Below are positions 21,118 through 38,322 of a DNA stretch of 64,000 nucleotides, in pieces (the stretch's first letter is position 1; every line of letters begins with the position of its first letter). Under the pieces are notes generated by a model. The model saw only the letters and a list, made by a program, of their open reading frames with translations. It did not search any database and was not told where the DNA came from. The stretch spans positions 1,349,501-1,413,500 of the forward strand of contig NZ_CP119968.1 in assembly GCF_032163395.1 (NCBI RefSeq), in the 5' to 3' direction. This DNA is from Gloeocapsopsis dulcis. GTDB taxonomy: Bacteria; Cyanobacteriota; Cyanobacteriia; Cyanobacteriales; Chroococcidiopsidaceae. A program made the translations under genes and the position numbers.

Positions 21118-21352
21118 TGTTATCTTGGCTGTTGAATAGTGTTGTAGATAAGTTAAATCTACTTCAAATTTCTACCGGAGGATTTAGGCAACTGGCTGAG
21201 ATCAAGCGTCAGAAATCGACTGTGGCGTAAGTCACTGGCGGTAGTTCATTTCGTTCTTCTACAATCTTGCGCAGTTCGTCAATACTACTTGATTTGTCCG
21301 GAAGTTAGCCGTACAATTGGCAATGTGAATCAGGCAACACGTGAAAGTTATT

Positions 21353-21664
21353 ATGTCTCCCACAACTAAAGAAAATTCTAAAGCTAAACTAGACCGTTCT
21401 AAGGACGAACGGCTGGAAGTTCGTATTACTAAAGAGCAAAAAGAATTATTTCAGCAGGCTGCTGATATCCAGGGTCGGACATTAACAGACTTCGTAGTCA
21501 GCAGTGTATTTGAGGCTGCGAAGCAGGCTATTCAGGAACACGAAATAATGGTTTTAACTTTACGAGATCGGAAAGTTTTTGTTGAAGCACTACTCAACCC
21601 CCCAGAGCCAAGTGCTAAACTGCGGGATGCTGCTTCGCGCTACAAGCAGAAAATGGGTGTATAG
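21353..21664 (+). CDS. DUF1778 antitoxin (TacA-like)
   Basis: A 103-residue antitoxin of the DUF1778/TacA family, with an N-terminal ribbon-helix-helix (DERLEVRITKEQKELFQQAA, then RTLTDFVVSSVFEAA) for DNA binding and a C-terminal tail (LNPPEPSAKLRDAASRYK) of the kind that wraps its toxin. The ATG at 21353 was chosen over an upstream GTG because family members begin close to the basic helix. The gene lies 5 bases ahead of a GNAT toxin, which is the standard antitoxin-first order. It should neutralise the toxin and repress the operon. Confidence 0.92.
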   Translation: MSPTTKENSKAKLDRSKDERLEVRITKEQKELFQQAADIQGRTLTDFVVSSVFEAAKQAIQEHEIMVLTLRDRKVFVEALLNPPEPSAKLRDAASRYKQKMGV

Positions 21665-21669
21665 GTGTA

Positions 21670-22179
21670 ATGGATTCTGATTATTTGATAGAGCCGCTTA
21701 GTTCGCATCACGATCGAGCGGCTTTTTGTTGCGGCGTTGAAGCATTAGATCGTTATTTGCAAAAGCAAGCCAGTCAAGACGCTCGCAAATACATTGCTGC
21801 TCCGTATGTTTTGTTTGACAAAAACTCTAATGTCGTTATTGGGTATTACACATTGTGTGGAACCAATATTATTGCAGAAGAGCTACCGACCGAAATAGCT
21901 AAGAAACTCCCACGATATCCGATGGTGCCAGCAACCTTACTTGGCAGATTAGCAGTTGATAAAAATTATCGAGGAAAGAGATTAGGCGAAGATCTGTTAA
22001 TGGATGCTTTGTATCGCAGCTTTTTGCACGCAAAAAACGTTGCTTCAATGGCTGTAGTAGTAGACGCCAAGGATAATAAAGCCCGCTCCTTTTACGAGCA
22101 TTATGACTTTATTCGGTTTCCGGATCAGCCAAATCGGCTATTTCTGCCAATGTTTACGATAGTGAAGATGTTTGAATAG
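21670..22179 (+). CDS. GNAT-family toxin (TacT-like)
   Basis: A 169-residue acetyltransferase toxin. Members acetylate the amino group of aminoacyl-tRNA and stop translation. The acetyl-CoA site is LLGRLAVDKNYRGKRLGEDLL, and the C-terminal stretch SFYEHYDFIRF-DQPNRLFLPM carries the Tyr that acts in catalysis. The N-terminus (EPLSSHHDRAAFCCGVEALDRYL) is typical. It pairs with the DUF1778 antitoxin 5 bases upstream. Both frames are intact, so the module is probably functional. Confidence 0.93.
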   Translation: MDSDYLIEPLSSHHDRAAFCCGVEALDRYLQKQASQDARKYIAAPYVLFDKNSNVVIGYYTLCGTNIIAEELPTEIAKKLPRYPMVPATLLGRLAVDKNYRGKRLGEDLLMDALYRSFLHAKNVASMAVVVDAKDNKARSFYEHYDFIRFPDQPNRLFLPMFTIVKMFE

Positions 22180-22617: not shown

Positions 22618-23573
22618 GAGCGCATTTCTAAATAAAAGATGAAGTAGCTTCATACTGTTCCCCCAAACGTTGCAGCATCAATCGGATCATGGCTCCCTGA
22701 ATCATTGCCTCACTCACTTCAGGTAACAGTTCATAATCCTTGCTCAAACGGCGATTCTGATTGAGCCAACCAAAAGTTCGCTCTACAACCCACCGCTTCG
22801 GTAGGACAACGAATCCTGCTTCAGAGCGCCTGACTACCTCGACTTTCGCACCACACAATTGTTCAATCACACGCGCAAAGTTCTCCCCTTGATAGCCCTG
22901 ATCCACCCAGACCAATTGCAGTGTCTGTGCGTCTGCTTGAGCCATTTCATGCACGACAAACGCCCCCCTTTTTGTTCTGAGCAATTGGCATTGATTACCA
23001 GTACTGAGATCAGCAGTCCCAACGTGTCCACTAGGATAAAGCGCTTGCGTCCTTTCACTAATTTGCCACCGTCGAAGCCGTAGACCTCCCCTTTTTTCCG
23101 TCGTTTTGACGGTTTGACTGTCGATACAACCTGCACTAGCATGAGGATTTCTTCCAGCAGCACCCCGGACTGATTGCCGTAGTTGGTCATGGATCTGCTG
23201 CCATACCCCCTTGCGTTGCCAACGCCGAAAATACTTGTACACCGTCTGCCAAGCAGGCAGGTCTTTGGGCAAATCACTCCAGATACAACCATTGCGAAGT
23301 TGGTAGAAGATACCATTAAGGATCTCTCGTTCATCGACCTGTTGTTTGCGACCTCGACCTTGAGAACGAGAGGGCAGCAGGGGGCGAATCACTTCCCATT
23401 CTTGATCTGTTAAATCACTGCTATAGCGCTTGGCAGCACGTTCTTTAGCTCGATAAAACTGGCGAGTTTGCGGGGAGAGAACCATCGTCCAACTTTGAAT
23501 TCACAACTAACCTATCCTGGTCTAACTAGCGTACTCCTGCCCTTCAGTTAATCTTTTTTTTAGAAATACACTC
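22618..23573 (-). mobile_element. IS5-family insertion sequence (956 bp)
   Basis: Terminal inverted repeats start GAGYGYATTTCTAAA and extend about 24 bases (22618-22641 and 23550-23573, four or so mismatches). The target duplication is TCA (22615-22617 and 23574-23576), proven by the restored higB frame on removal. A 3-bp duplication and the transposase type fit the IS427/IS1031 part of the IS5 family. The element carries one transposase on the minus strand with a garbled middle, so it may be immobile on its own. Confidence 0.9.
22628..23485 (-). CDS. IS5-family transposase with two compensating frameshifts
   Basis: A 285-codon frame opening with YSSDLTDQEWEVIRPLLP and carrying DDE landmarks CIDSQTVKTTEK (first D), LVWVDQGYQGENFA (second D) and VVERTFGWLNQNRR (E). 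Between the first two, the frame reads an unrelated Arg/Leu-rich stretch. The expected family sequence, GFDGGKLVKGRKRFILVDTL, is present in another frame over the same DNA. The switch points coincide with homopolymer runs at 23088-23097 (A6G4 on the coding strand) and 22963-22973 (A5G6). So a +1 and a -1 slip bracket about 45 codons. Unless recoding or sequencing error explains it, the enzyme is inactive. Confidence 0.85.
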   Translation of the reverse strand: MVLSPQTRQFYRAKERAAKRYSSDLTDQEWEVIRPLLPSRSQGRGRKQQVDEREILNGIFYQLRNGCIWSDLPKDLPAWQTVYKYFRRWQRKGVWQQIHDQLRQSVRGAAGRNPHASAGCIDSQTVKTTEKRGGLRLRRWQISERTQALYPSGHVGTADLSTGNQCQLLRTKRGAFVVHEMAQADAQTLQLVWVDQGYQGENFARVIEQLCGAKVEVVRRSEAGFVVLPKRWVVERTFGWLNQNRRLSKDYELLPEVSEAMIQGAMIRLMLQRLGEQYEATSSFI

Positions 23574-23790: not shown

Positions 23791-24147
23791 ATGAGAGTAC
23801 CAAAAAATAGAAAACCACCACATCCAGGAAGGATTTTGCGCAAATACTTTTTGGATAATTTAGGTATAGATCAACAACAGTTAGCTAATGCAATAGGTGT
23901 AGAGTACAAAAGAATTAAGTCCATAGTTAACGAACGCAGGGACATTAGTGAAGATACAGCTTTAAGGCTTGCAAAATACTTTGGCAATACTCCAGGGTTT
24001 TGGTTAAATTTGCAAAGTGTTTACAACTTATATAAAGTAGAGCAAAAAATCAACGAAGATTTGAATAAAATCACTGCTTTAGAGATCGAAAACGATTGTG
24101 TATCTATATCAGAAATGAACCTCACAGTTGATGCTAATCAAACATAG
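23791..24147 (+). CDS. higA: HigA-type antitoxin (XRE/HTH)
   Basis: A 118-residue antitoxin with the HigA signature MRVPKNRKPPHPGRILRKYF and a Cro-type helix-turn-helix (QQLANAIGVEYKRIKSIVNERRDISEDTALRLAKYFG), closing with TPGFWLNLQSVYNL. It normally binds HigB and represses the higBA promoter. Here the toxin upstream is destroyed, so the antitoxin is an orphan that may persist as a plain regulator or be decaying. The C-terminal 30 residues are longer than in compact HigA proteins. It ends 140 bases from the CRISPR array. Confidence 0.92.
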   Translation: MRVPKNRKPPHPGRILRKYFLDNLGIDQQQLANAIGVEYKRIKSIVNERRDISEDTALRLAKYFGNTPGFWLNLQSVYNLYKVEQKINEDLNKITALEIENDCVSISEMNLTVDANQT

Positions 24148-24287: not shown

Positions 24288-27200
24288 GTTTCCATTCAAT
24301 TAATTTCCCCTATTAATGGGAAGTTCCTCCAATTTCTCCCAGCTTTCCTCCTCCCCAATGTAGCAGCGGGTTTCCATTCAATTAATTTCCCCTATTAATG
24401 GGAAGAGTACCGCTGTTTAGCTGATGTTGTGCCAGCTTCCAGGCGGTTTCCATTCAATTAATTTCCCCTATTAATGGGAAGCTGAAGACGGATAAACCTA
24501 GCATAAGCGAGATGATGGAAGAGTTTCCATTCACTTAATTTCCCCTATTAATGGGAAGCCGCCAAAACGTTTTCCAGCATGCACACTGGGCTTCTGGGTT
24601 TCCATTCAATTAATTTCCCCTATTAATGGGAAGGTTAAAGAGTACTTATACTTACAATCCAAGTGATGTACCAGATGGGTTTCCATTCAATTAATTTCCC
24701 CTATTAATGGGAAGAAACTGGAGGTTGTTGCCAACTATGTTCACTTTTGGCTGTTTCCATTCAATTAATTTCCCCTATTAATGGGAAGTCACATTACCGG
24801 AAGGCGAAACTATTATCAGTTTCAGTTTCCATTCAATTAATTTCCCCTATTAATGGGAAGCTTTAAGTTCTGGTAGTAGTCCTCCACCAGTCCCTAAGTT
24901 TCCATTCAATTAATTTCCCCTATTAATGGGAAGTAGTTCCTACATCTTTTTCTTGAATAATTTGATGTAAAGGTTTCCATTCAATTAATTTCCCCTATTA
25001 ATGGGAAGAAGTCACGTTCCTGTCGTTCACAAGATTGATCAGATGTAGAGTTTCCATTCAATTAATTTCCCCTATTAATGGGAAGCGTGCTAGGCTACGC
25101 TATCAAGGCACTCATTAGTTTTCAACAGACGTTTCCATTCAATTAATTTCCCCTATTAATGGGAAGTTCTCATAGCTGAACAGGAGATAGAAGGAAATGC
25201 CAAAGCACGTTTCCATTCAATTATTTTCCCCTATTAATGGGAAGGTATATACTCGAAGAGGTACCGTTCTGTGACATGGAGTTTCCATTCAATTAATTTC
25301 CCCTATTAATGGGAAGTTACGGGCTGCTGAATGGTCACAACAAACAGAGGAAAACAGATGAAGTTTCCATTCAATTAATTTCCCCTATTAATGGGAAGTA
25401 ACCTAGCTTCGTATGCTCTGCTTAGTTCGTTGAAGGTTTCCATTCAATTAATTTCCCCTATTAATGGGAAGAACCGTCATTGCTCATCTTTCCTAATAGA
25501 AAAGATTGTTTCCATTCAATTAATTTCCCCTATTAATGGGAAGATACTAGAAATGAGACGCTACATCAAACGTACAAGGTTTCCATTCAATTAATTTCCC
25601 CTATTAATGGGAAGTCTTAAAGATGACGTGTTTAACTTGCTAGCTGGTGATGACAAGTTTCCATTCAATTAATTTCCCCTATTAATGGGAAGCAAACTGC
25701 TGGTTTAAGACCGTCTCAGATTGACGCCATGTTTCCATTCAATTAATTTCCCCTATTAATGGGAAGATTTCCAGTTGTGCTGGAACACCACCAAGAAAGC
25801 ATAGTTCTACACCTGTCAAGTTTCCATTCAATTAATTTCCCCTATTAATGGGAAGTCAAGTACGTGTTTAGATTTGGCAACAAACCAGGTGCAACAAAGG
25901 TTTCCATTCAATTAATTTCCCCTATTAATGGGAAGTCCGCTACCTCTCCCCACATCCTGTTTGCGTCTTTTGTTTCCATTCAATTAATTTCCCCTATTAA
26001 TGGGAAGTTCCTGGCACATACCAGTAGAATTCGCTGAAGAATTGTTTCCATTCAATTAATTTCCCCTATTAATGGGAAGTTGACAATCGTTGCGGTACTC
26101 CAATGTGTCTTTCATTTCTGTTTCCATTCAATTAATTTCCCCTATTAATGGGAAGTGCTAGAGAAACTCAACGAGTCGTTACAAAACATGGTCGTCGTTT
26201 CCATTCAATTAATTTCCCCTATTAATGGGAAGTGATGAATTTTCCGCCGCGCCCGACGCTGAAATTTTGAGTTTCCATTCAATTAATTTCCCCTATAATG
26301 GGAAGTTAAGGTCGTTGTGCTTTGTGCTTGAAAAAGAAAGGAAGAAGGAAGGAGTCAGTTTCCATTCAATTAATTTCCCCTATTAATGGGAAGCTAATAA
26401 AGAAAAGCGTAACAACGAAGTTCGCAAAATAGCCCTAGAGTTTCCATTCAATTAATTTCCCCTATTAATGGGAAGCTAAGCCGAAAAGGACATACCATGG
26501 TTGACACAGTACGTTTCCATTCAATTAATTTCCCCTATTAATGGGAAGTAGAGGAATTGCAGTATCTACCGAAGACAAAGCAGAAGAAAGGAGTTTCCAT
26601 TCAATTAATTTCCCCTATTAATGGGAAGTCCTGTCTAGCGGCTGTGTCTAGCTCTAGCTGAAGTTTCCATTCAATTAATTTCCCCTATTAATGGGAAGGC
26701 AGAAGCAATCTCAAGGCTGGATAAAATCATGTCTCTGTTTCCATTCAATTAATTTCCCCTATTAATGGGAAGACACCGCTGCGGGTACGATCTGCAAGCT
26801 TTGATTCAAGTTTCCATTCAATTAATTTCCCCTATTAATGGGAAGAAGAAACCTATGAATCAGGGAAAGTGAAGAAGGGTAAGTGTTTCCATTCAATTAA
26901 TTTCCCCTATTAATGGGAAGCCCACTACCACCGTAGAACCGATGGCATTAACAATGTCTAAGGTTTCCATTCAATTAATTTCCCCTATTAATGGGAAGAG
27001 GACAACACATGAAAGGTGCAGCTTACATCTTCAAGTTTCCATTCAATTAATTTCCCCTATTAATGGGAAGTTACGTACTGCATACACCGCGTTGCGTTGC
27101 TTCTTTGTTGTTTCCATTCAATTAATTTCCCCTATTAATGGGAAGCCCGCAGTTGGTCGCGTACCTCAAGCGTGTTATGAACAGTTTCCATTCAATTAAT

Positions 27201-27742
27201 TTCCCCTATTAATGGGAAGTTGTTGTAGTAGTGTACAAACTTGTAGTTAGTTGTGTTTCCATTCAATTAATTTCCCCTATTAATGGGAAGATCTCTGCAA
27301 TGTACGAAGATGGTGAAATAACTGAAGTTTCCATTCAATTAATTTCCCCTATTAATGGGAAGAGCAAACTGTAAACAAGTTGCTAGATATTGGAGTTATT
27401 CCGTTTCCATTCAATTAATTTCCCCTATTAATGGGAAGACACATACACACAAGGAACGAGTAATGAAACGCTACATCAAGTTTCCATTCAATTAATTTCC
27501 CCTATTAATGGGAAGTATAAAGATATCGACAGGATAGCAGAACACTACCGGAAGTTTTGTTTCCATTCAATTAATTTCCCCTATTAATGGGAAGACGAAA
27601 ATGAGACGCTACGTAAAGAGAAACAGCAGACAAGAGTTTCCATTCAATTAATTTCCCCTATTAATGGGAAGTGAAGAAGCGTTATGGATGGCTGTTCGCT
27701 TTATGAGTTTCCATTCAATTAATTTCCCCTATTAATGGGAAG
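24288..27742 (-). CRISPR. CRISPR array, 46 repeats of 36 bp and 45 spacers
   Basis: On the plus strand each repeat starts GTTTCCATTCAATTAA and ends CTATTAATGGGAAG; on the minus strand it ends GAATGGAAAC, the form that gives a 5' crRNA handle. Transcription is therefore probably leftward from a leader beside cas2. Spacers run mostly 34-46 bases, with two of 53 (25767-25819) and 52 (26306-26357). Three repeats vary: 24523 (A to C), 25209 (A to T), and 26271 (one T lost, 35 bp); all lie away from the leader, as expected for older units. The repeat can fold TTCCC against GGGAA around AUUAAUA, followed by an AU-rich single strand. Confidence 0.98.
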
Positions 27743-27926
27743 CCCTTATATTAAAGCCTTTATTTTGCAAGGTGTCCAATAGCCAAATACGAGGGATGTT
27801 GATGTGAGCTACACAGAAGCATAAGCTAAAAGAAATAAAATTCCCTTAACCCTTATCATACAGATAATCGAGGGTTATATCGCAACAATAATTATTCTGG
27901 GTATTTGCACTATTGTTCGCGGTGCT
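27743..27926 (-). promoter_or_regulatory. CRISPR leader between cas2 and the array
   Basis: This 184-base A/T-rich stretch lies between the cas2 stop and the first-transcribed repeat (27707-27742). Repeat orientation, invariant repeats near it and adaptation genes on its other side identify it as the leader carrying the array promoter and the site of spacer entry. No reading frame stands out. Confidence 0.7.
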
Positions 27927-28205
27927 CTACACAATAACTGAGCCAGGTATTTGCACAACTGGTAATCCTCCCCAGACTTCTACTTTCGGTAATGTATGAC
28001 CAGACAAAGGGTAGAAACGAACACTATCTTCATCCTTCTTAACCTTCTTGCGTAAGCGCTGGCGTAATTCCCAATACTTATTAGTAGTAAGAACACACTC
28101 AAATACACTGTACTGTACTCGTTGTCCGTATCCTTCTAATAAATCAGAAACTTTTTTTCGACGTCGATCGCAAGGAATATCGTAGGTTACTACGTAAAGC
28201 AACAT
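27927..28205 (-). CDS. cas2: CRISPR-associated endonuclease Cas2
   Basis: A 92-residue Cas2 with the ferredoxin-like fold signature LLYVVTYDIPCDRRRKKVSD, whose first Asp follows strand 1, and QRVQYSVFECVL. It dimerises and bridges two Cas1 dimers in the spacer-integration complex. The start lies 15 bases after the cas1 stop. It is the last protein gene of the cmr operon before the leader. Confidence 0.96.
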   Translation of the reverse strand: MLLYVVTYDIPCDRRRKKVSDLLEGYGQRVQYSVFECVLTTNKYWELRQRLRKKVKKDEDSVRFYPLSGHTLPKVEVWGGLPVVQIPGSVIV

Positions 28206-28220
28206 TTGACGGTGTTAAAT

Positions 28221-29213
28221 TTAGCGGATAAGGTAAGGTTTGTAACCGAGAGCAGGAGAATACACAAATTGTTTAAAAGCTTTAATTTGCTGAGTTAGTA
28301 AATCCCAACGTGGTTGGTCATCACCATGCTCTGTCTTGTGCTTTTCCTCCATACGCTGTAGGAATGCGCGGAGCAGTTTTTTTCTTCCTATATCGTTCAG
28401 GTAGCAACCTCCATTGTGATAGTCAAAGTCTTCATTTGGATTCATAACCATTTTATTAACTAAATACAAGACCAGAGAGTCTATTATCGGTGCGCGAAAT
28501 TCTTCAACTAAATCTGAAGCAAGTGCTGCGTGGCGTTCAGAACCTTGGTGAAGACAAGCATGATAAGGATCTAGTCCTTGTAACTCAATTAAACTAAGTA
28601 TGTGATTCCACAATACTTGATACCCAAAACTCAGCATAGCGTTAACAGGATTTCCAGGCGGTCGGCGCGATCGCCCCATAAACGTAAACCCTGCTCCTGT
28701 AAGACATTCTCCAAATGCAGAGAAGTAACTCGCGGCTCCCGCACCTTCAAGTCCCATTAGTTTTTCAACTGTATTTGCTTGCGCTGCTTGTGAAACCAAA
28801 TATTCTAAGCTTTGAATTGCAAGGGCAGTAATTTCTGAACTACGACGTCGCTGTTGACGCAGCAAAATTACACGACTATTTCTTAGTTTTGCCTGAACAA
28901 TTTCTCTAGCAACAATTAGTCTTTCTGTTGCTGAAAGTTGTTGTTGGTAGCGCGATAAATAGCGGTAGCCTCGCTCGATCGGTAAAATTCTGCCGTAACA
29001 ATAGCCCATGCGCGATAAGTATGCAATCGGAATATCTCTTTGCAGACAGGTTCTAATTACTTGGGTAGTAATTTGTGACTTCCCAAAAATCAGGATTTGT
29101 TCGAGCAAGGGTAACTGCACTTCATCGAGAATCGTTTCTCCTCGTTTGATAACAACCATCTCGTGTCGTAGATGTAGATAACACCCTTGCTGTGAAACGT
29201 AAAGCGATCGCAC
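28221..29213 (-). CDS. cas1: CRISPR-associated integrase Cas1
   Basis: A 330-residue Cas1, the metal-dependent integrase of spacer acquisition. Active-site residues are in LMGLEGAGAASYF (Glu), CLHQGSERHAALASDLVEEF (His, then Asp/Glu), and the C-terminal helices are complete. The start codon is GTG (GTG CGA TCG CTT, reading MRSLYVSQ). No reverse transcriptase is fused, unlike some cyanobacterial type III Cas1 proteins. Five bases separate it from the membrane protein gene upstream. Confidence 0.97.
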   Translation of the reverse strand: MRSLYVSQQGCYLHLRHEMVVIKRGETILDEVQLPLLEQILIFGKSQITTQVIRTCLQRDIPIAYLSRMGYCYGRILPIERGYRYLSRYQQQLSATERLIVAREIVQAKLRNSRVILLRQQRRRSSEITALAIQSLEYLVSQAAQANTVEKLMGLEGAGAASYFSAFGECLTGAGFTFMGRSRRPPGNPVNAMLSFGYQVLWNHILSLIELQGLDPYHACLHQGSERHAALASDLVEEFRAPIIDSLVLYLVNKMVMNPNEDFDYHNGGCYLNDIGRKKLLRAFLQRMEEKHKTEHGDDQPRWDLLTQQIKAFKQFVYSPALGYKPYLIR

Positions 29214-29497: not shown

Positions 29498-30994
29498 CTA
29501 TGGTTGGTAGTGAGTAATTGTGTCAAATATGGTTTCGTGTATTCTTGACATGAAACTTGCTTCTGACAAAAATCTAAAAGTTTGTTGAGAGATAAAGTTG
29601 AGACAATTAAGAACTCTTGTCAGCCAACTTTTTTTATCTTGTGTACCCCAAGCTGCAAAGACTTCGTTCTTCTGTAGTCCTAAAAGGCGATGAAATAATT
29701 GATTGCGCCGCTTTTTAGTAACATCAAAATAAATCTGCATATCAGGATGATTGTGCACCTCTGGTCGAGCTACTTGGAGTAAACGATCGAGTGTTGAACC
29801 ATATAAGTACAACGCTTTCCCTGGTTCTAGCTTGTTAAATTCACTTTGATATTTTGGTAGCACCTTAATAATTGACCTTTTAATTTCTGGTGTTTTATCG
29901 GTAGATTGTTTAATCTGCTCTGAATAAGTTGCGATCGCCCATTCAGACATCAATCCTTCAACCGCACGAAAGCTATGAAATAGGGCTTCTACAGTGTTAC
30001 CTTGCTCAAGACGAATTTCACCTAAGTAAGCTGCTTCATACGCAGTCCACCACCATTGATTGATATGGGAAATATTACCGGAAATGTAGCCTCTGGCTGT
30101 AGCTGCATTGAGCCGACGCTTAAATTTATCAAAGTCAGCAATGTTCCACAAAGTTGCTAATTCCAATAAGTTTTTTAACTTTGATCCAGTTGAATTTTGT
30201 TGATTCAAATACGGCTCTAACAACCGCTGTACGCCAGCATAGTCGTAGCGTTCTAAAAGTGCGATCGCTTCACGTCGATCAAGATCCCAAAGATAGTGCG
30301 TTCCTCTATAAGGTCCTTTGTAAGGCGAAGACTGACCTTGAGAATTTGCTGCTTCGTCTTCCTCAAAATCGTAAAAGGTTACTTGATCTTTATAAAGACT
30401 TAAAGCCGTGACCCGCAAAGCATCAGAAGACTGGCCAACTCCTCCTTTTGGCGAGACAGCAATTTCTTTAAATTTAGGAAACTCACGCCCGACAAGCTCC
30501 CAAACGTTCTGCTTACACCAACGAATCATTTCATCAAAATCAGCAGGGTTTTCGCCATCTTTTCCTAAAGGAATAACTTGAGATGCCACATTATATTTAG
30601 CAGCAATCCACTGTTTAATAATTTGCGCACAGTAGAAGGTATCTTTAGTACGAAATTGCACAGTTTCTGGCTGATCAGTGCCAATTAGGTATACTTTGTG
30701 AAGTCGTGGTGCAAGTTGATGTAAAAGTTGACCTAAGATAATTGGTTGGAGCCGCTGTTGATATTGAGAAAAATTTTCTGATAGATATTGAGTACGCGAA
30801 CGGAAGTCTTTACCAGGTTCTCCTTTTACATTAGGATCGGTGGACAAGTCTTCAAAAACTTGAGCCTCCTGAGTCAAACTGTCCCCATATCTAGCACGGT
30901 CGTTACCTACGTTCCACCAGTGACCTGATGAAACTTGATAAGCTAAGTCGCGCGTGCCGATAGTAGCAATCAAAATGCAAGTTTTTTCAGGCAT
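29498..30994 (-). CDS. CARF-HEPN CRISPR ribonuclease (Csm6/Csx1-like)
   Basis: A 498-residue ancillary type III effector. Residues 1 to about 215 look like a CARF sensor: ILIATIGTRDLAYQV (first nucleotide-binding loop), VYLIGTDQPETVQF, and IAVSPKGGVGQSSDALRV (second loop). The C-terminal half is helical, with ALFHSFRAVEGLMSEWAI as a HEPN helix and KKRRNQLFHRLLG containing the RX4H catalytic motif (R430-H435). Such proteins cut RNA when bound by cyclic oligoadenylate. The Cas10 of this operon has an intact GGDD, so activator and effector are both present. Eight bases separate it from the Cmr6-Cmr1 gene. Confidence 0.88.
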   Translation of the reverse strand: MPEKTCILIATIGTRDLAYQVSSGHWWNVGNDRARYGDSLTQEAQVFEDLSTDPNVKGEPGKDFRSRTQYLSENFSQYQQRLQPIILGQLLHQLAPRLHKVYLIGTDQPETVQFRTKDTFYCAQIIKQWIAAKYNVASQVIPLGKDGENPADFDEMIRWCKQNVWELVGREFPKFKEIAVSPKGGVGQSSDALRVTALSLYKDQVTFYDFEEDEAANSQGQSSPYKGPYRGTHYLWDLDRREAIALLERYDYAGVQRLLEPYLNQQNSTGSKLKNLLELATLWNIADFDKFKRRLNAATARGYISGNISHINQWWWTAYEAAYLGEIRLEQGNTVEALFHSFRAVEGLMSEWAIATYSEQIKQSTDKTPEIKRSIIKVLPKYQSEFNKLEPGKALYLYGSTLDRLLQVARPEVHNHPDMQIYFDVTKKRRNQLFHRLLGLQKNEVFAAWGTQDKKSWLTRVLNCLNFISQQTFRFLSEASFMSRIHETIFDTITHYQP

Positions 30995-31002
30995 GAGTTA
31001 AA

Positions 31003-32877
31003 TTAAAAAGGGAAAATTTGGGCATAGTTTTCAGAATCTGTGCGATCGCGCAATTCTTTTAGATACTTCTTGCGTGGCTCTTGCGTTGCACCAAAAACTG
31101 TGACAACTTGATAATTATCTAAGTCAGCAATCCACACAGGAGATGGCTTAACGCCTCTACTAACCTTGCCGCAGAGATTACCATCGTAGTTGGAACCTTG
31201 TTTAAAACTAGGATCGTGTAAAACTGCAAGCGCGTAGGGTTTTTCGATGTGTGGCTCTCCAGTACAAACAACAATGCGACAATTGGCATCAATTGCTTCG
31301 ATCCATTGATCTCCTTTAACTTGTCCTACAGCTAGAAGCGATCGCACATTAATGTTGTTTCCTGTAAATTGCTGCAACGCGGAGTAGAAACTCTGCAATT
31401 GTTGGCGAAATAGTTGCTGAAATTGAGTAACAGTTTCAGGTAGATTCCAAAATGGTTCGTTACTATCTGGAATTAGCGTGGAACCGCGCCACCAAGGAGC
31501 GCGATCGCGGGTTTTGCGGGAATAACACGGACGTCTTGCACCTTGACCAACACCACCCAAATGAAACATCATCCAAGTTAAGTTTTTGAGAATTGTGTTA
31601 AGTGCTGCTTTTTTGACTTCCTCTAAACTTGCTGTTTGCGAAGAGTTACGAAGTATGAGTGTTCCTGTTGCTAAACCACAAGGGTCGTTTTTCCCTTGCT
31701 GATTCGGTCGAGCATTATCGCGGCTTACTTTACCAGTGGCTTCAATCCGAAATAATCCAGTGCATTTTGGCTCGATCCCTCCGAAAATCTCCATTTCGAG
31801 ATCGCGAACTACCTGCGGAGCAAGCACGCCTAATGCAAAAGCCCGAAACCAATAACGTAACATCGAACGAAACGCAATTGGACGGACTTCAGATTCAGCT
31901 TTAGTTAATGCTTTCCATCTATCCTTAAATTGCCACTCCTGAAATTCTTGCCGCCCGTGAGTTAGTTGTCCCTGTAATTCAAAAGCTACTTTGATGATGA
32001 CTTTCTTTTTAACAGAACGTAATTCCCTAGATTCCAGCCCGCCATAGCCGCTATTGATTTGCGAACCGATTCCTTGTGCTAAACCATTAACTAGCCATTG
32101 TTTGACTTGTTGTAAAGTTGGCTCGTCGCATCCAGCGATTGGACGAATACCGATGACAAATGTAGGTTTTTCAAGCGAGAGAAATACATTAGGATTAGTG
32201 TTGTACTCTGGTATGTGTTCTGCATTTCTTTTCCAGATTGCATTTGCCATATCTGGCTTTAAGCCACCTTGTCTTTTCTCTCCTGGTAGTGGGTAAGCGT
32301 CGAGAAAAATGACTTTCCCCATCGTTTGGGGGTTAACATCACCAAAGATTTCCTTGATTTGCGCTTCGCTAAAATTGGTATCTCGACTGGCGATCGCCCG
32401 TGCAACGCCTCTTAAGGTACTACTCGGAATGTACGGCATTCCCAAGGCATCAAATGCTGGAAGTAAAGTAGATTCAGGACCTTTGTGTCCGCCTACTCGA
32501 ATTCGCCAAGGACATTGAACTTGGAACGAGTTACCTTCGCCAGCAATTAATTGGGTACGTTGTGTCAGTTGAGTTAAGCGATCGCGGTAATTAGTTTGTT
32601 GCGCTGCCATTTGCAGCATTTGGACTTTAGTCGAATCTTTGTGTTCGCTATCAAGCGATCGCATCCAACGCAGATATTCAACAAAGCTTGCAGATTGGTC
32701 GGGATGCGGCTTGGGGTCTAAAGGATGCTCAATCCAAGGAGAGGGTGGATTTTGGCTGTCTTCGTTTCTAGACTGGTTGTTCGGATTGTTAGTACCACCG
32801 TTCCCCCTATTGGAGCCATTGCTTTGATGATTTGAACGCTGAGGTGGATTCGGTTTTCTGGGTCGCTCAGGTACCAT
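31003..32877 (-). CDS. Cmr6-Cmr1 fusion protein (RAMP subunits)
   Basis: A 624-residue protein. Residues 1-50 are a low-complexity Pro/Asn/Ser tail. Residues about 90-300 match Cmr6: TLLPAFDALGMPYIPSSTLR (136-155), GKVIFLDAYP, and the Gly-rich loop AQGIGSQINSGYGGLESREL (267-286). Residues about 300-624 match Cmr1: IAFRSMLRYWFRAFALGVL (334-352), EMEIFGGIEPKCTGLFRIEA, and HLGGVGQGARRPCYSR. Two subunits that sit at the head of the Cmr backbone are thus one chain. No separate cmr1 or cmr6 is in the window. It starts 3 bases after cmr5. Confidence 0.85.
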   Translation of the reverse strand: MVPERPRKPNPPQRSNHQSNGSNRGNGGTNNPNNQSRNEDSQNPPSPWIEHPLDPKPHPDQSASFVEYLRWMRSLDSEHKDSTKVQMLQMAAQQTNYRDRLTQLTQRTQLIAGEGNSFQVQCPWRIRVGGHKGPESTLLPAFDALGMPYIPSSTLRGVARAIASRDTNFSEAQIKEIFGDVNPQTMGKVIFLDAYPLPGEKRQGGLKPDMANAIWKRNAEHIPEYNTNPNVFLSLEKPTFVIGIRPIAGCDEPTLQQVKQWLVNGLAQGIGSQINSGYGGLESRELRSVKKKVIIKVAFELQGQLTHGRQEFQEWQFKDRWKALTKAESEVRPIAFRSMLRYWFRAFALGVLAPQVVRDLEMEIFGGIEPKCTGLFRIEATGKVSRDNARPNQQGKNDPCGLATGTLILRNSSQTASLEEVKKAALNTILKNLTWMMFHLGGVGQGARRPCYSRKTRDRAPWWRGSTLIPDSNEPFWNLPETVTQFQQLFRQQLQSFYSALQQFTGNNINVRSLLAVGQVKGDQWIEAIDANCRIVVCTGEPHIEKPYALAVLHDPSFKQGSNYDGNLCGKVSRGVKPSPVWIADLDNYQVVTVFGATQEPRKKYLKELRDRTDSENYAQIFPF

Positions 32878-32880
32878 GTG

Positions 32881-33270
32881 TTACTCTCCTCCTGTGACAT
32901 CGTAATAAACTGCGGTTGCCCAAAAGCTAAATTCTTGCGCGAGAGCAAGTCCCAACCCTGTTAATCCAAGGTATTCATCTGTACTGAGGTTTTTTAGTAC
33001 GTTTAAACCATCGTTTGCAAGATTATTGATACCAGAAAGTTGTTGCAAACACTCGAAGTATTTACGGACGATTTGCTTTTTACCTTCTTGACTCAGTGCC
33101 TTTTCTTCTGCTTTGAGGCGTAACATCCCCCAAGTAGACAAGTACGTATAAAGTTCTACAGCTTGATTTTTCTGCTCTTTGAGACGAGTTTCATCTTGAT
33201 GCGATAGCGATCGCAGATTGCTCAAAGCTTCGTAGACAGGTTTACCAATTGTGCGCGGATCAAAAGTCAT
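32881..33270 (-). CDS. cmr5: type III-B CRISPR small subunit Cmr5
   Basis: A 129-residue all-helical protein beginning MTFDPRTIGKPVYEALSNLR. It has the Cmr5 features YLSTWGMLRLKAEEKAL and a C-terminal LGLALAQEFSFWATAVYY. Several copies line the inner filament of the Cmr complex and contact the target RNA. It lies 11 bases downstream of cmr4. Length is normal. Confidence 0.93.
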   Translation of the reverse strand: MTFDPRTIGKPVYEALSNLRSLSHQDETRLKEQKNQAVELYTYLSTWGMLRLKAEEKALSQEGKKQIVRKYFECLQQLSGINNLANDGLNVLKNLSTDEYLGLTGLGLALAQEFSFWATAVYYDVTGGE

Positions 33271-33281
33271 TGTTAACGCTC

Positions 33282-34130
33282 CTAAACTATGAATTGCTGC
33301 ACGAAACCACGACCTAAACTTTCTTGTCCGCCGATTTGCAAAATTGAATGCTGCGTCATGAGTGTTTGGAAATCAGCATGGGATTGATTTGCACTACCGT
33401 TGACTTGTGAAGTGATTCCCCAAGGAAAATACATTAACGTATCAGGTGGAATTGCTTCTTCGTAACGGAAACCACCATCTACAGACTTATACTCGTCCAA
33501 CTTAATTTTGACTTGCCGCCATAAACTCATTTGAATCAACGTACAACAGTGTTGATCGGGCAATACCAATAACCGCCTGATATTTGCATGCCCTATCTGC
33601 GGTACAAAGGTTTCCCAATTGTCCCCAGGGTGCAAATCTTGTGCTTTTAAAATTGCATCTTTGAGATAAACTGGCTGATTAGTGTTGAGATTAGTGCTGT
33701 ATTCTTGCGGAATATCTACTGTGATTCGATTGAGCCTTGCCCATCGTTGAAGCAACATTGGGCTAGAGATCCACACCACGCCATGACTCAAGGAAGGAAC
33801 GGGCAACCAGAGAACAGAACCATCTCCAATCCAAACGTCACCTTGTTCTAGTTGAGTGAGTTTTTTGCCAGTTGCAATTTCATACTCAGCAACGAAGTCT
33901 CGGTCTTGAATATCAGTTTTTAAGTCGGGTCCAAACAATTTGACTTGTTTGATCCGATTAGACATTTCGTTACCGACGCTTGCCCGCAGTTTACCGCGAA
34001 TTGTACTTGATGGAATATAAGGCAGATTGGTATGAGATTCGCGGGCAATTCCTAATAAGTTGCCTTCTTGCGTTATACCGCCGGTATGCAAAGGCGAAAG
34101 GAGGTAGAGGTATACGAGATTACTATTCAT
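33282..34130 (-). CDS. cmr4: type III-B CRISPR backbone subunit Cmr4
   Basis: Counted from ATG at 34130 the product is 282 residues, starting MNSNLVYLYLLSPLHTGGI. RAMP motifs: LPYIPSSTIRGKLRASVGNE near the N-terminus and QIGGQESLGRGFVQ at the C-terminus. Cmr4 is the Cas7-type backbone that cuts target RNA at 6-base intervals; the acidic loop typical of the catalytic Asp is probably DLKTDIQDRDF but this was not modelled. A TTG at 34157 extends the frame into cmr3 and is less likely. The ATG falls 5 bases after the cmr3 stop. Confidence 0.95.
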   Translation of the reverse strand: MNSNLVYLYLLSPLHTGGITQEGNLLGIARESHTNLPYIPSSTIRGKLRASVGNEMSNRIKQVKLFGPDLKTDIQDRDFVAEYEIATGKKLTQLEQGDVWIGDGSVLWLPVPSLSHGVVWISSPMLLQRWARLNRITVDIPQEYSTNLNTNQPVYLKDAILKAQDLHPGDNWETFVPQIGHANIRRLLVLPDQHCCTLIQMSLWRQVKIKLDEYKSVDGGFRYEEAIPPDTLMYFPWGITSQVNGSANQSHADFQTLMTQHSILQIGGQESLGRGFVQQFIV

Positions 34131-34135
34131 AATGA

Positions 34136-38322
<4,187 letters not shown>

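What the first reader, a model, noticed from the sequence alone, without database searches (positions are those of the whole stretch)
25544..27635. Three spacers hit the same gene start in related invaders
Spacers at 25544-25578, 27439-27479 and 27595-27635 all contain ATG-ARA-CGC-TAC-RTM-AA. In frame they read MRRYIKRT, MKRYIK and MRRYVKRN. Third-position and conservative differences, with different upstream bases, suggest homologous genes in three relatives of one phage or plasmid. The three were acquired at different times, two near the leader and one mid-array.
Basis: seen in the sequence. Interest (0 to 1): 0.7.

Follow-up and report, generated by a model that had tools for sequence, protein, structure and literature searches.

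The report
Three CRISPR spacers share one gene start
An otherwise ordinary bacterial RNA-targeting (type III-B) CRISPR immune memory holds three separately acquired entries that cover the start of related genes from an unidentified invader, all in the orientation that would let the immune complex pair with the invader's messenger RNA.

Summary
Spacers at 25544-25578, 27439-27479 and 27595-27635 (positions 29, 4 and 2 of 45 from the leader side) share ATGARACGCTACRTMAA. The motif occurs nowhere else in the host genome. The three pairs are the best of all spacer pairs; two exceed every pair in 12 simulated arrays. Differences are coding-like in the ATG frame (M[KR]RY[IV]..., p about 0.001) and not in the other five. 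The locus is type III-B (Cmr) with plain Cas1-Cas2. All three crRNAs would be antisense to the mRNA, the orientation type III needs.

No protospacer was found for these spacers in phage, plasmid, IMG/VR, GTDB, own-genome or 391 same-order genome searches, so "three relatives of one element" is not shown. A rival cannot be excluded: several different genes of one virus sharing a short N-terminal leader. Large uncultured phages exist with up to 17 genes per contig starting MKRYI[KR], and codon variation among those genes matches that among the spacers. Three random hits on one gene start are unlikely (below 0.001), implying a hot spot or selection for protective spacers. Mostly ordinary CRISPR biology with an unidentified target.

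The parts
24288..27742 (-). CRISPR array, 46 repeats of 36 nt and 45 spacers; crRNA strand inferred to be minus, leader side at 27743
   Evidence: only copy in the genome
25544..25578 (+). Spacer 29: ATACTAGAA-ATG AGA CGC TAC ATC AAA CGT ACA AG (MRRYIKRT)
27439..27479 (+). Spacer 4: AAGGA site, then ATG AAA CGC TAC ATC AA (MKRYI + K or N)
27595..27635 (+). Spacer 2: ACGAAA-ATG AGA CGC TAC GTA AAG AGA AAC AGC AGA CAA (MRRYVKRNSRQ)
27743..27926 (-). Inferred leader between cas2 and the first repeat; no sigma-70-like promoter recognised
   Evidence: position and repeat orientation; promoter scan empty
27927..28205 (-). cas2
   Evidence: PF09827 2.6e-24
28221..29213 (-). cas1, no reverse transcriptase domain
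   Evidence: PF01867 1.2e-89
29498..30994 (-). Csx1/Csm6-type CARF-HEPN protein
   Evidence: PADLOC CARF1--CARF_HEPN 2.8e-124
31003..32877 (-). Cmr6-type RAMP protein with a Cmr1-like stretch
32881..33270 (-). cmr5
   Evidence: PADLOC Cmr5 9.7e-66
33282..34157 (-). cmr4
   Evidence: TIGR02580 6.2e-30
34136..35269 (-). cmr3
   Evidence: PF09700 3.6e-69
35269..38322 (-). cas10/cmr2
   Evidence: TIGR02577 2.9e-42; PADLOC Cas10b over residues 4-1012

Best explanation
The array serves a type III-B (Cmr) system with conventional adaptation (Cas1-Cas2, no reverse transcriptase). Three spacers acquired at different times come from the 5' end of one family of genes whose products begin M[KR]RY[IV]K, carried by diverged members of an unsampled virus or plasmid family that attacks this host. 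Each crRNA is the reverse complement of the gene start, so it would pair with the start of the invader's mRNA and activate Cas10 and the Csx1-type RNase. Repeated capture of the same gene start most likely reflects selection for protective spacers against a strongly or early transcribed gene. Shown: shared sequence, coding-like divergence, type III-B locus, array position. Inferred: crRNA strand, antisense targeting, identity of the element, early expression.
For: Motif three times in the array and nowhere else in the genome. The spacer pairs are the best in the array, two of three above every simulated pair. Coding-like substitution in one frame only. Ribosome-site-like AAGGA upstream of the ATG in spacer 4. 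Cmr operon with Cas1-Cas2 and Csx1. Reverse transcriptases of the genome lie far from the locus. By chance, three of 45 spacers on any one gene start is below 0.001 even for a 5-kb element. In Thermus thermophilus, type III spacers cluster in early phage genes and pair with phage transcripts through selection for function (PMC7515739).
Against: No protospacer or homologous gene found anywhere searched. Sequence beyond codon 7 is too short to show homology of whole genes, and codons 8-9 already differ. The 9 bases upstream agree at only 5 of 9 between spacers 29 and 4, within the range of unrelated tagged phage genes. The array as a whole shows no clear sense-strand or gene-start enrichment, and spacer 36 appears to lie in the non-working orientation relative to a resolvase gene.
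Confidence: 0.58

Rival explanations
1. The three spacers come from different genes of one virus (or of close relatives) that share a short N-terminal leader M[KR]RY[IV]K, a multi-gene tag, not from one orthologous gene.
For: Phage contigs exist with 17, 5, 5, 5 and 5 genes beginning M-K-R-Y-[IV]-[KR], most of the proteins unrelated after residue 10. Codons 2-6 agree at 11.4 of 14 bases on average among those genes, against 13, 12 and 11 among the spacers. Many copies of the start would make three hits easier.
Against: Those contigs were found because the motif was searched for, and nothing ties them to this host. In them the residue after the leader is mostly S/A/T/C, in two spacers it is R. 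Even with a tag on 5-17 genes the chance of three random hits stays at or below about 2e-4.
Confidence: 0.2
2. Paralogous copies of one small gene within a single element supplied the three spacers.
For: Fits the same sequence data and coding-like divergence.
Against: No direct evidence; no element found.
Confidence: 0.12
3. Chance similarity of gene starts: unrelated invader genes that happen to begin with basic residues.
For: M[KR]RY[IV] starts are found in unrelated genes of many viruses.
Against: Rank 1-3 of all spacer pairs, two above every simulated pair; 0.15 matches expected in the whole window; shared codons CGC TAC in all three.
Confidence: 0.06
4. The motif is not coding but a conserved DNA or RNA element, or an acquisition signal.
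For: Only the short core is conserved.
Against: Differences follow codon structure in one frame; the motif sits at different offsets in the spacers.
Confidence: 0.04

Closest known systems
Type III-B (Cmr) CRISPR-Cas locus
   Same: Cas10/Cmr2, Cmr3, Cmr4, Cmr5, Cmr6/Cmr1-like, CARF-HEPN RNase, Cas1, Cas2 and a 36-nt repeat ending in GAAAC on the inferred crRNA strand
   Different: nothing clearly outside the usual range; [quoted passage not shown]
Biased type III spacer sets against Thermus phages phiFa and phiKo (PMC7515739)
   Same: spacers concentrated on particular phage genes and complementary to the mRNA through selection
   Different: there protospacers are mapped and the bias was measured during infection; here the target is unknown and only 3 of 45 spacers are concerned
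Shared short N-terminal peptide on different phage proteins (T4 capsid targeting sequence, from general knowledge)
   Same: precedent for one short N-terminal peptide on several proteins of one phage
   Different: no sequence relation tested; relevant only to the rival reading

Membership tests
CRISPR array | regular direct repeats with unique spacers | tested here: met
   46 repeats, 45 spacers
Type III-B CRISPR-Cas | Cas10/Cmr2 with Cmr3, Cmr4, Cmr5, Cmr6 and Cmr1 | tested here: met
   Cmr1 only as a weak match inside the Cmr6-type protein
Type III-B CRISPR-Cas | Cas6 or other crRNA processing enzyme | not tested
   none recognised in the operon; the rest of the genome was not searched for it
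RT-associated type III-B (RNA-derived spacers) | reverse transcriptase fused or adjacent to Cas1 | tested here: not met
   Cas1 is 330 aa with no RT; RVT_1 matches lie more than 200 kb away or on another contig
Spacers against homologous genes of related elements | spacers share a coding-like sequence | tested here: met
Spacers against homologous genes of related elements | protospacers located in homologous genes of related genomes | tested here: inconclusive
   no protospacer found
Functional type III spacer | crRNA antisense to target mRNA | tested here: inconclusive
   holds for all three if the minus strand is the crRNA strand, which is inferred from the repeat and operon order, not measured

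The most novel reading that the evidence does not exclude
The three spacers tap a repeated N-terminal leader present on many genes of one virus of this host, so a few crRNAs could engage many viral mRNAs at once: immunity aimed at a viral multi-gene tag.
Probability: 0.15. Interest if true: 0.7.

Novelty: new member of a known kind. Interest (0 to 1): 0.33.

Why it matters
If the same gene start was captured three separate times, it points to a transcript that is a good type III target and gives a short DNA and peptide signature for finding the unsampled virus or plasmid. The motif search also exposed large phages that put one N-terminal leader (MKRYI[KR]) on many unrelated proteins; I found no description of it in the held literature, and it may matter more than the spacers.

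Tried and rejected
Spacer duplication inside the array: rejected, because the offsets differ and the flanks are unrelated. Self or prophage origin: no second copy in the own genome. IMG/VR exact core: 35 hits, none with matching flanks, in unrelated genes. GTDB contigs: 15 hits in unrelated bacteria, near a rough chance expectation of 7-8. Two extra hits of the exact core in the order search (L010, L011) lie in very short frames without matching flanks; one hit of the degenerate pattern (L080) lies in a 30-aa frame overlapping a larger ORF. Wobble patterns for spacers 3, 6, 10 and 25 in IMG/VR: nothing. Array-wide gene-start or sense-strand bias: not significant. RT-based acquisition: no RT in the locus. 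Literature search for the repeat or the peptide MKRYI: no paper. Laying the whole genome in the Python box was not available.

Full report
What is there. The window holds a CRISPR array at 24288-27742 with 46 repeats (GTTTCCATTCAATTAATTTCCCCTATTAATGGGAAG; three imperfect copies at 24523, 25209 and 26271) and 45 spacers of mean 40 nt. The repeat occurs only here in the 5.6-Mb genome. Next to it, all on the minus strand, lie cas2, cas1, a CARF-HEPN Csx1-type gene, a Cmr6-type protein with a Cmr1-like stretch, cmr5, cmr4, cmr3 and cas10/cmr2: a type III-B locus. A HetZ-related protein beyond the operon fits a cyanobacterium; no tool named the organism. Cas1 has no reverse transcriptase, and the RVT_1 genes of the genome lie far away.

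Orientation. The reverse complement of the repeat ends in ATGGAAAC, the form expected of a type III 5' handle (general knowledge). The cas operon runs into the array from the 27.7-kb end, and the imperfect repeats lie towards the other end. I infer that crRNAs are made from the minus strand and that the leader lies at 27743-27926. No promoter was recognised there, so this stays an inference.

The observation. Allowing 2 mismatches, 0.15 matches are expected in the window, and none of 100 shuffles reached 3. In an all-against-all comparison of the 45 spacers the three pairs rank 1 to 3 (scores 18, 15, 12; best of 12 simulated arrays 14). The ATG stands at base 10, 25 and 7 of the spacers, so this is not spacer duplication. 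In spacer 4 the sixth codon is cut, so it encodes MKRYI and then K or N.

Is it a gene start? Between spacers 29 and 2, seven bases differ over 24. In the ATG frame these give two silent codon changes (AAA/AAG, CGT/AGA) and two mild ones (I/V, T/N). The BLOSUM62 score is 35 of a possible 41; the other five frames reach at most 17 of 46. Random placement of seven changes reaches this score in 0.1% of trials, random bases at the same sites in 1.9%. Spacer 4 also carries AAGGA at a ribosome-site distance. So the stretch is most likely the 5' end of a protein-coding sequence under constraint, and the crRNAs would be antisense to its mRNA, the working orientation for type III. In Thermus thermophilus, selection for working spacers produces such strand and position bias (PMC7515739).

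What it belongs to. I could not find it. The 45 spacers, joined by N runs, gave no credible hit for these three in 50,697 phage records, 72,556 plasmid records, the own genome, 18 family relatives or the order sample of 391 genomes. The core and its wobble forms gave only unrelated genes in IMG/VR, unrelated bacteria in GTDB and chance hits in the order. [quoted passage not shown]

One gene family or one shared leader? Three random hits on any one gene start are improbable (9e-4 for a 5-kb element and less for larger ones, even if all 45 spacers came from it), so a hot spot or selection is needed. The data fit that, but also fit several genes of one virus with a common N-terminal leader. Such viruses exist: while searching with the motif I found contigs with 17 (253 kb), 5, 5, 5 and 5 genes beginning M-K-R-Y-[IV]-[KR], all on one strand within each contig, with a single match of the reversed control pattern among these five. 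Most of these proteins are unrelated after residue 10, and the KVP40 relative of one of them lacks the leader. Bases of codons 2-6 agree at 11.4 of 14 on average among those genes, against 13, 12 and 11 among the spacers; the upstream agreement of spacers 29 and 4 (5 of 9) is reached by 19% of pairs of those genes. The two readings cannot be separated without a protospacer. I prefer plain homology because the motif search itself selected the tagged phages, and their next residue (mostly S/A/T/C) differs from the R of two spacers.

No general rule for the array. A bias to gene starts across all 45 spacers is weak (4 against 1.7 expected, p 0.09), and open frames do not favour one strand. Spacer 36, read on the minus strand, gives STSDQSCERQERD, nearly identical to the N-terminus of plasmid serine resolvases (STADQSCERQEFD in pET46). 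Its crRNA would be in the sense orientation, which should not work against the resolvase mRNA. It suggests that mobile elements with resolvases are among the sources, though the nucleotide hits alone have E about 3.

Verdict. It is an ordinary type III-B memory with an interesting repeated target.

Noticed in passing
IMG/VR contigs IMGVR_UViG_3300028591_000074 (loci L124-L130), IMGVR_UViG_3300021254_000234 (L131), IMGVR_UViG_3300028887_000097 (L132), IMGVR_UViG_3300031867_000027 (L133), IMGVR_UViG_3300033463_000011 (L134-L138): Many genes of one phage start with the same N-terminal leader MKRYI[KR], mostly followed by S/A/T/C (17 in 253 kb; 5 in each of four others), usually preceded by ribosome sites, while most of the proteins are otherwise unrelated; a KVP40 homologue of one lacks the leader. 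No paper in the held library mentions MKRYI. Possibly a targeting or processing signal.
   Followed up: partly
window 25009-25049: Spacer 36 on the minus strand encodes STSDQSCERQERD, nearly the N-terminus of plasmid serine resolvases (STADQSCERQEFD in Erwinia plasmid pET46); its crRNA would be sense to that gene.
   Followed up: partly
window 31003-32877: 624-aa protein with a Cmr6-type domain and a Cmr1-like stretch (residues 325-453) in one reading frame; no separate cmr1 was recognised in the operon.
   Followed up: no
G000:C1:1144748, C1:3942987, C1:650079, C3:235375, C3:164569, C3:27934-28583: Seven RVT_1 matches in the host genome, two with identical scores and others interrupted by a stop or split, none near the cas operon; likely group II intron reverse transcriptases.
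   Followed up: no
window 22628-23485: By eye, an IS-type transposase gene on the minus strand (285 aa) about 800 bases before the leader-distal end of the array; not searched against families.
   Followed up: no
window 21341-22179 and 23791-24147: By eye, a ribbon-helix-helix plus GNAT-like gene pair and a HigA-like small gene near the distal end of the array, resembling toxin-antitoxin modules. The 169-aa and 118-aa products gave no PADLOC match.
   Followed up: no
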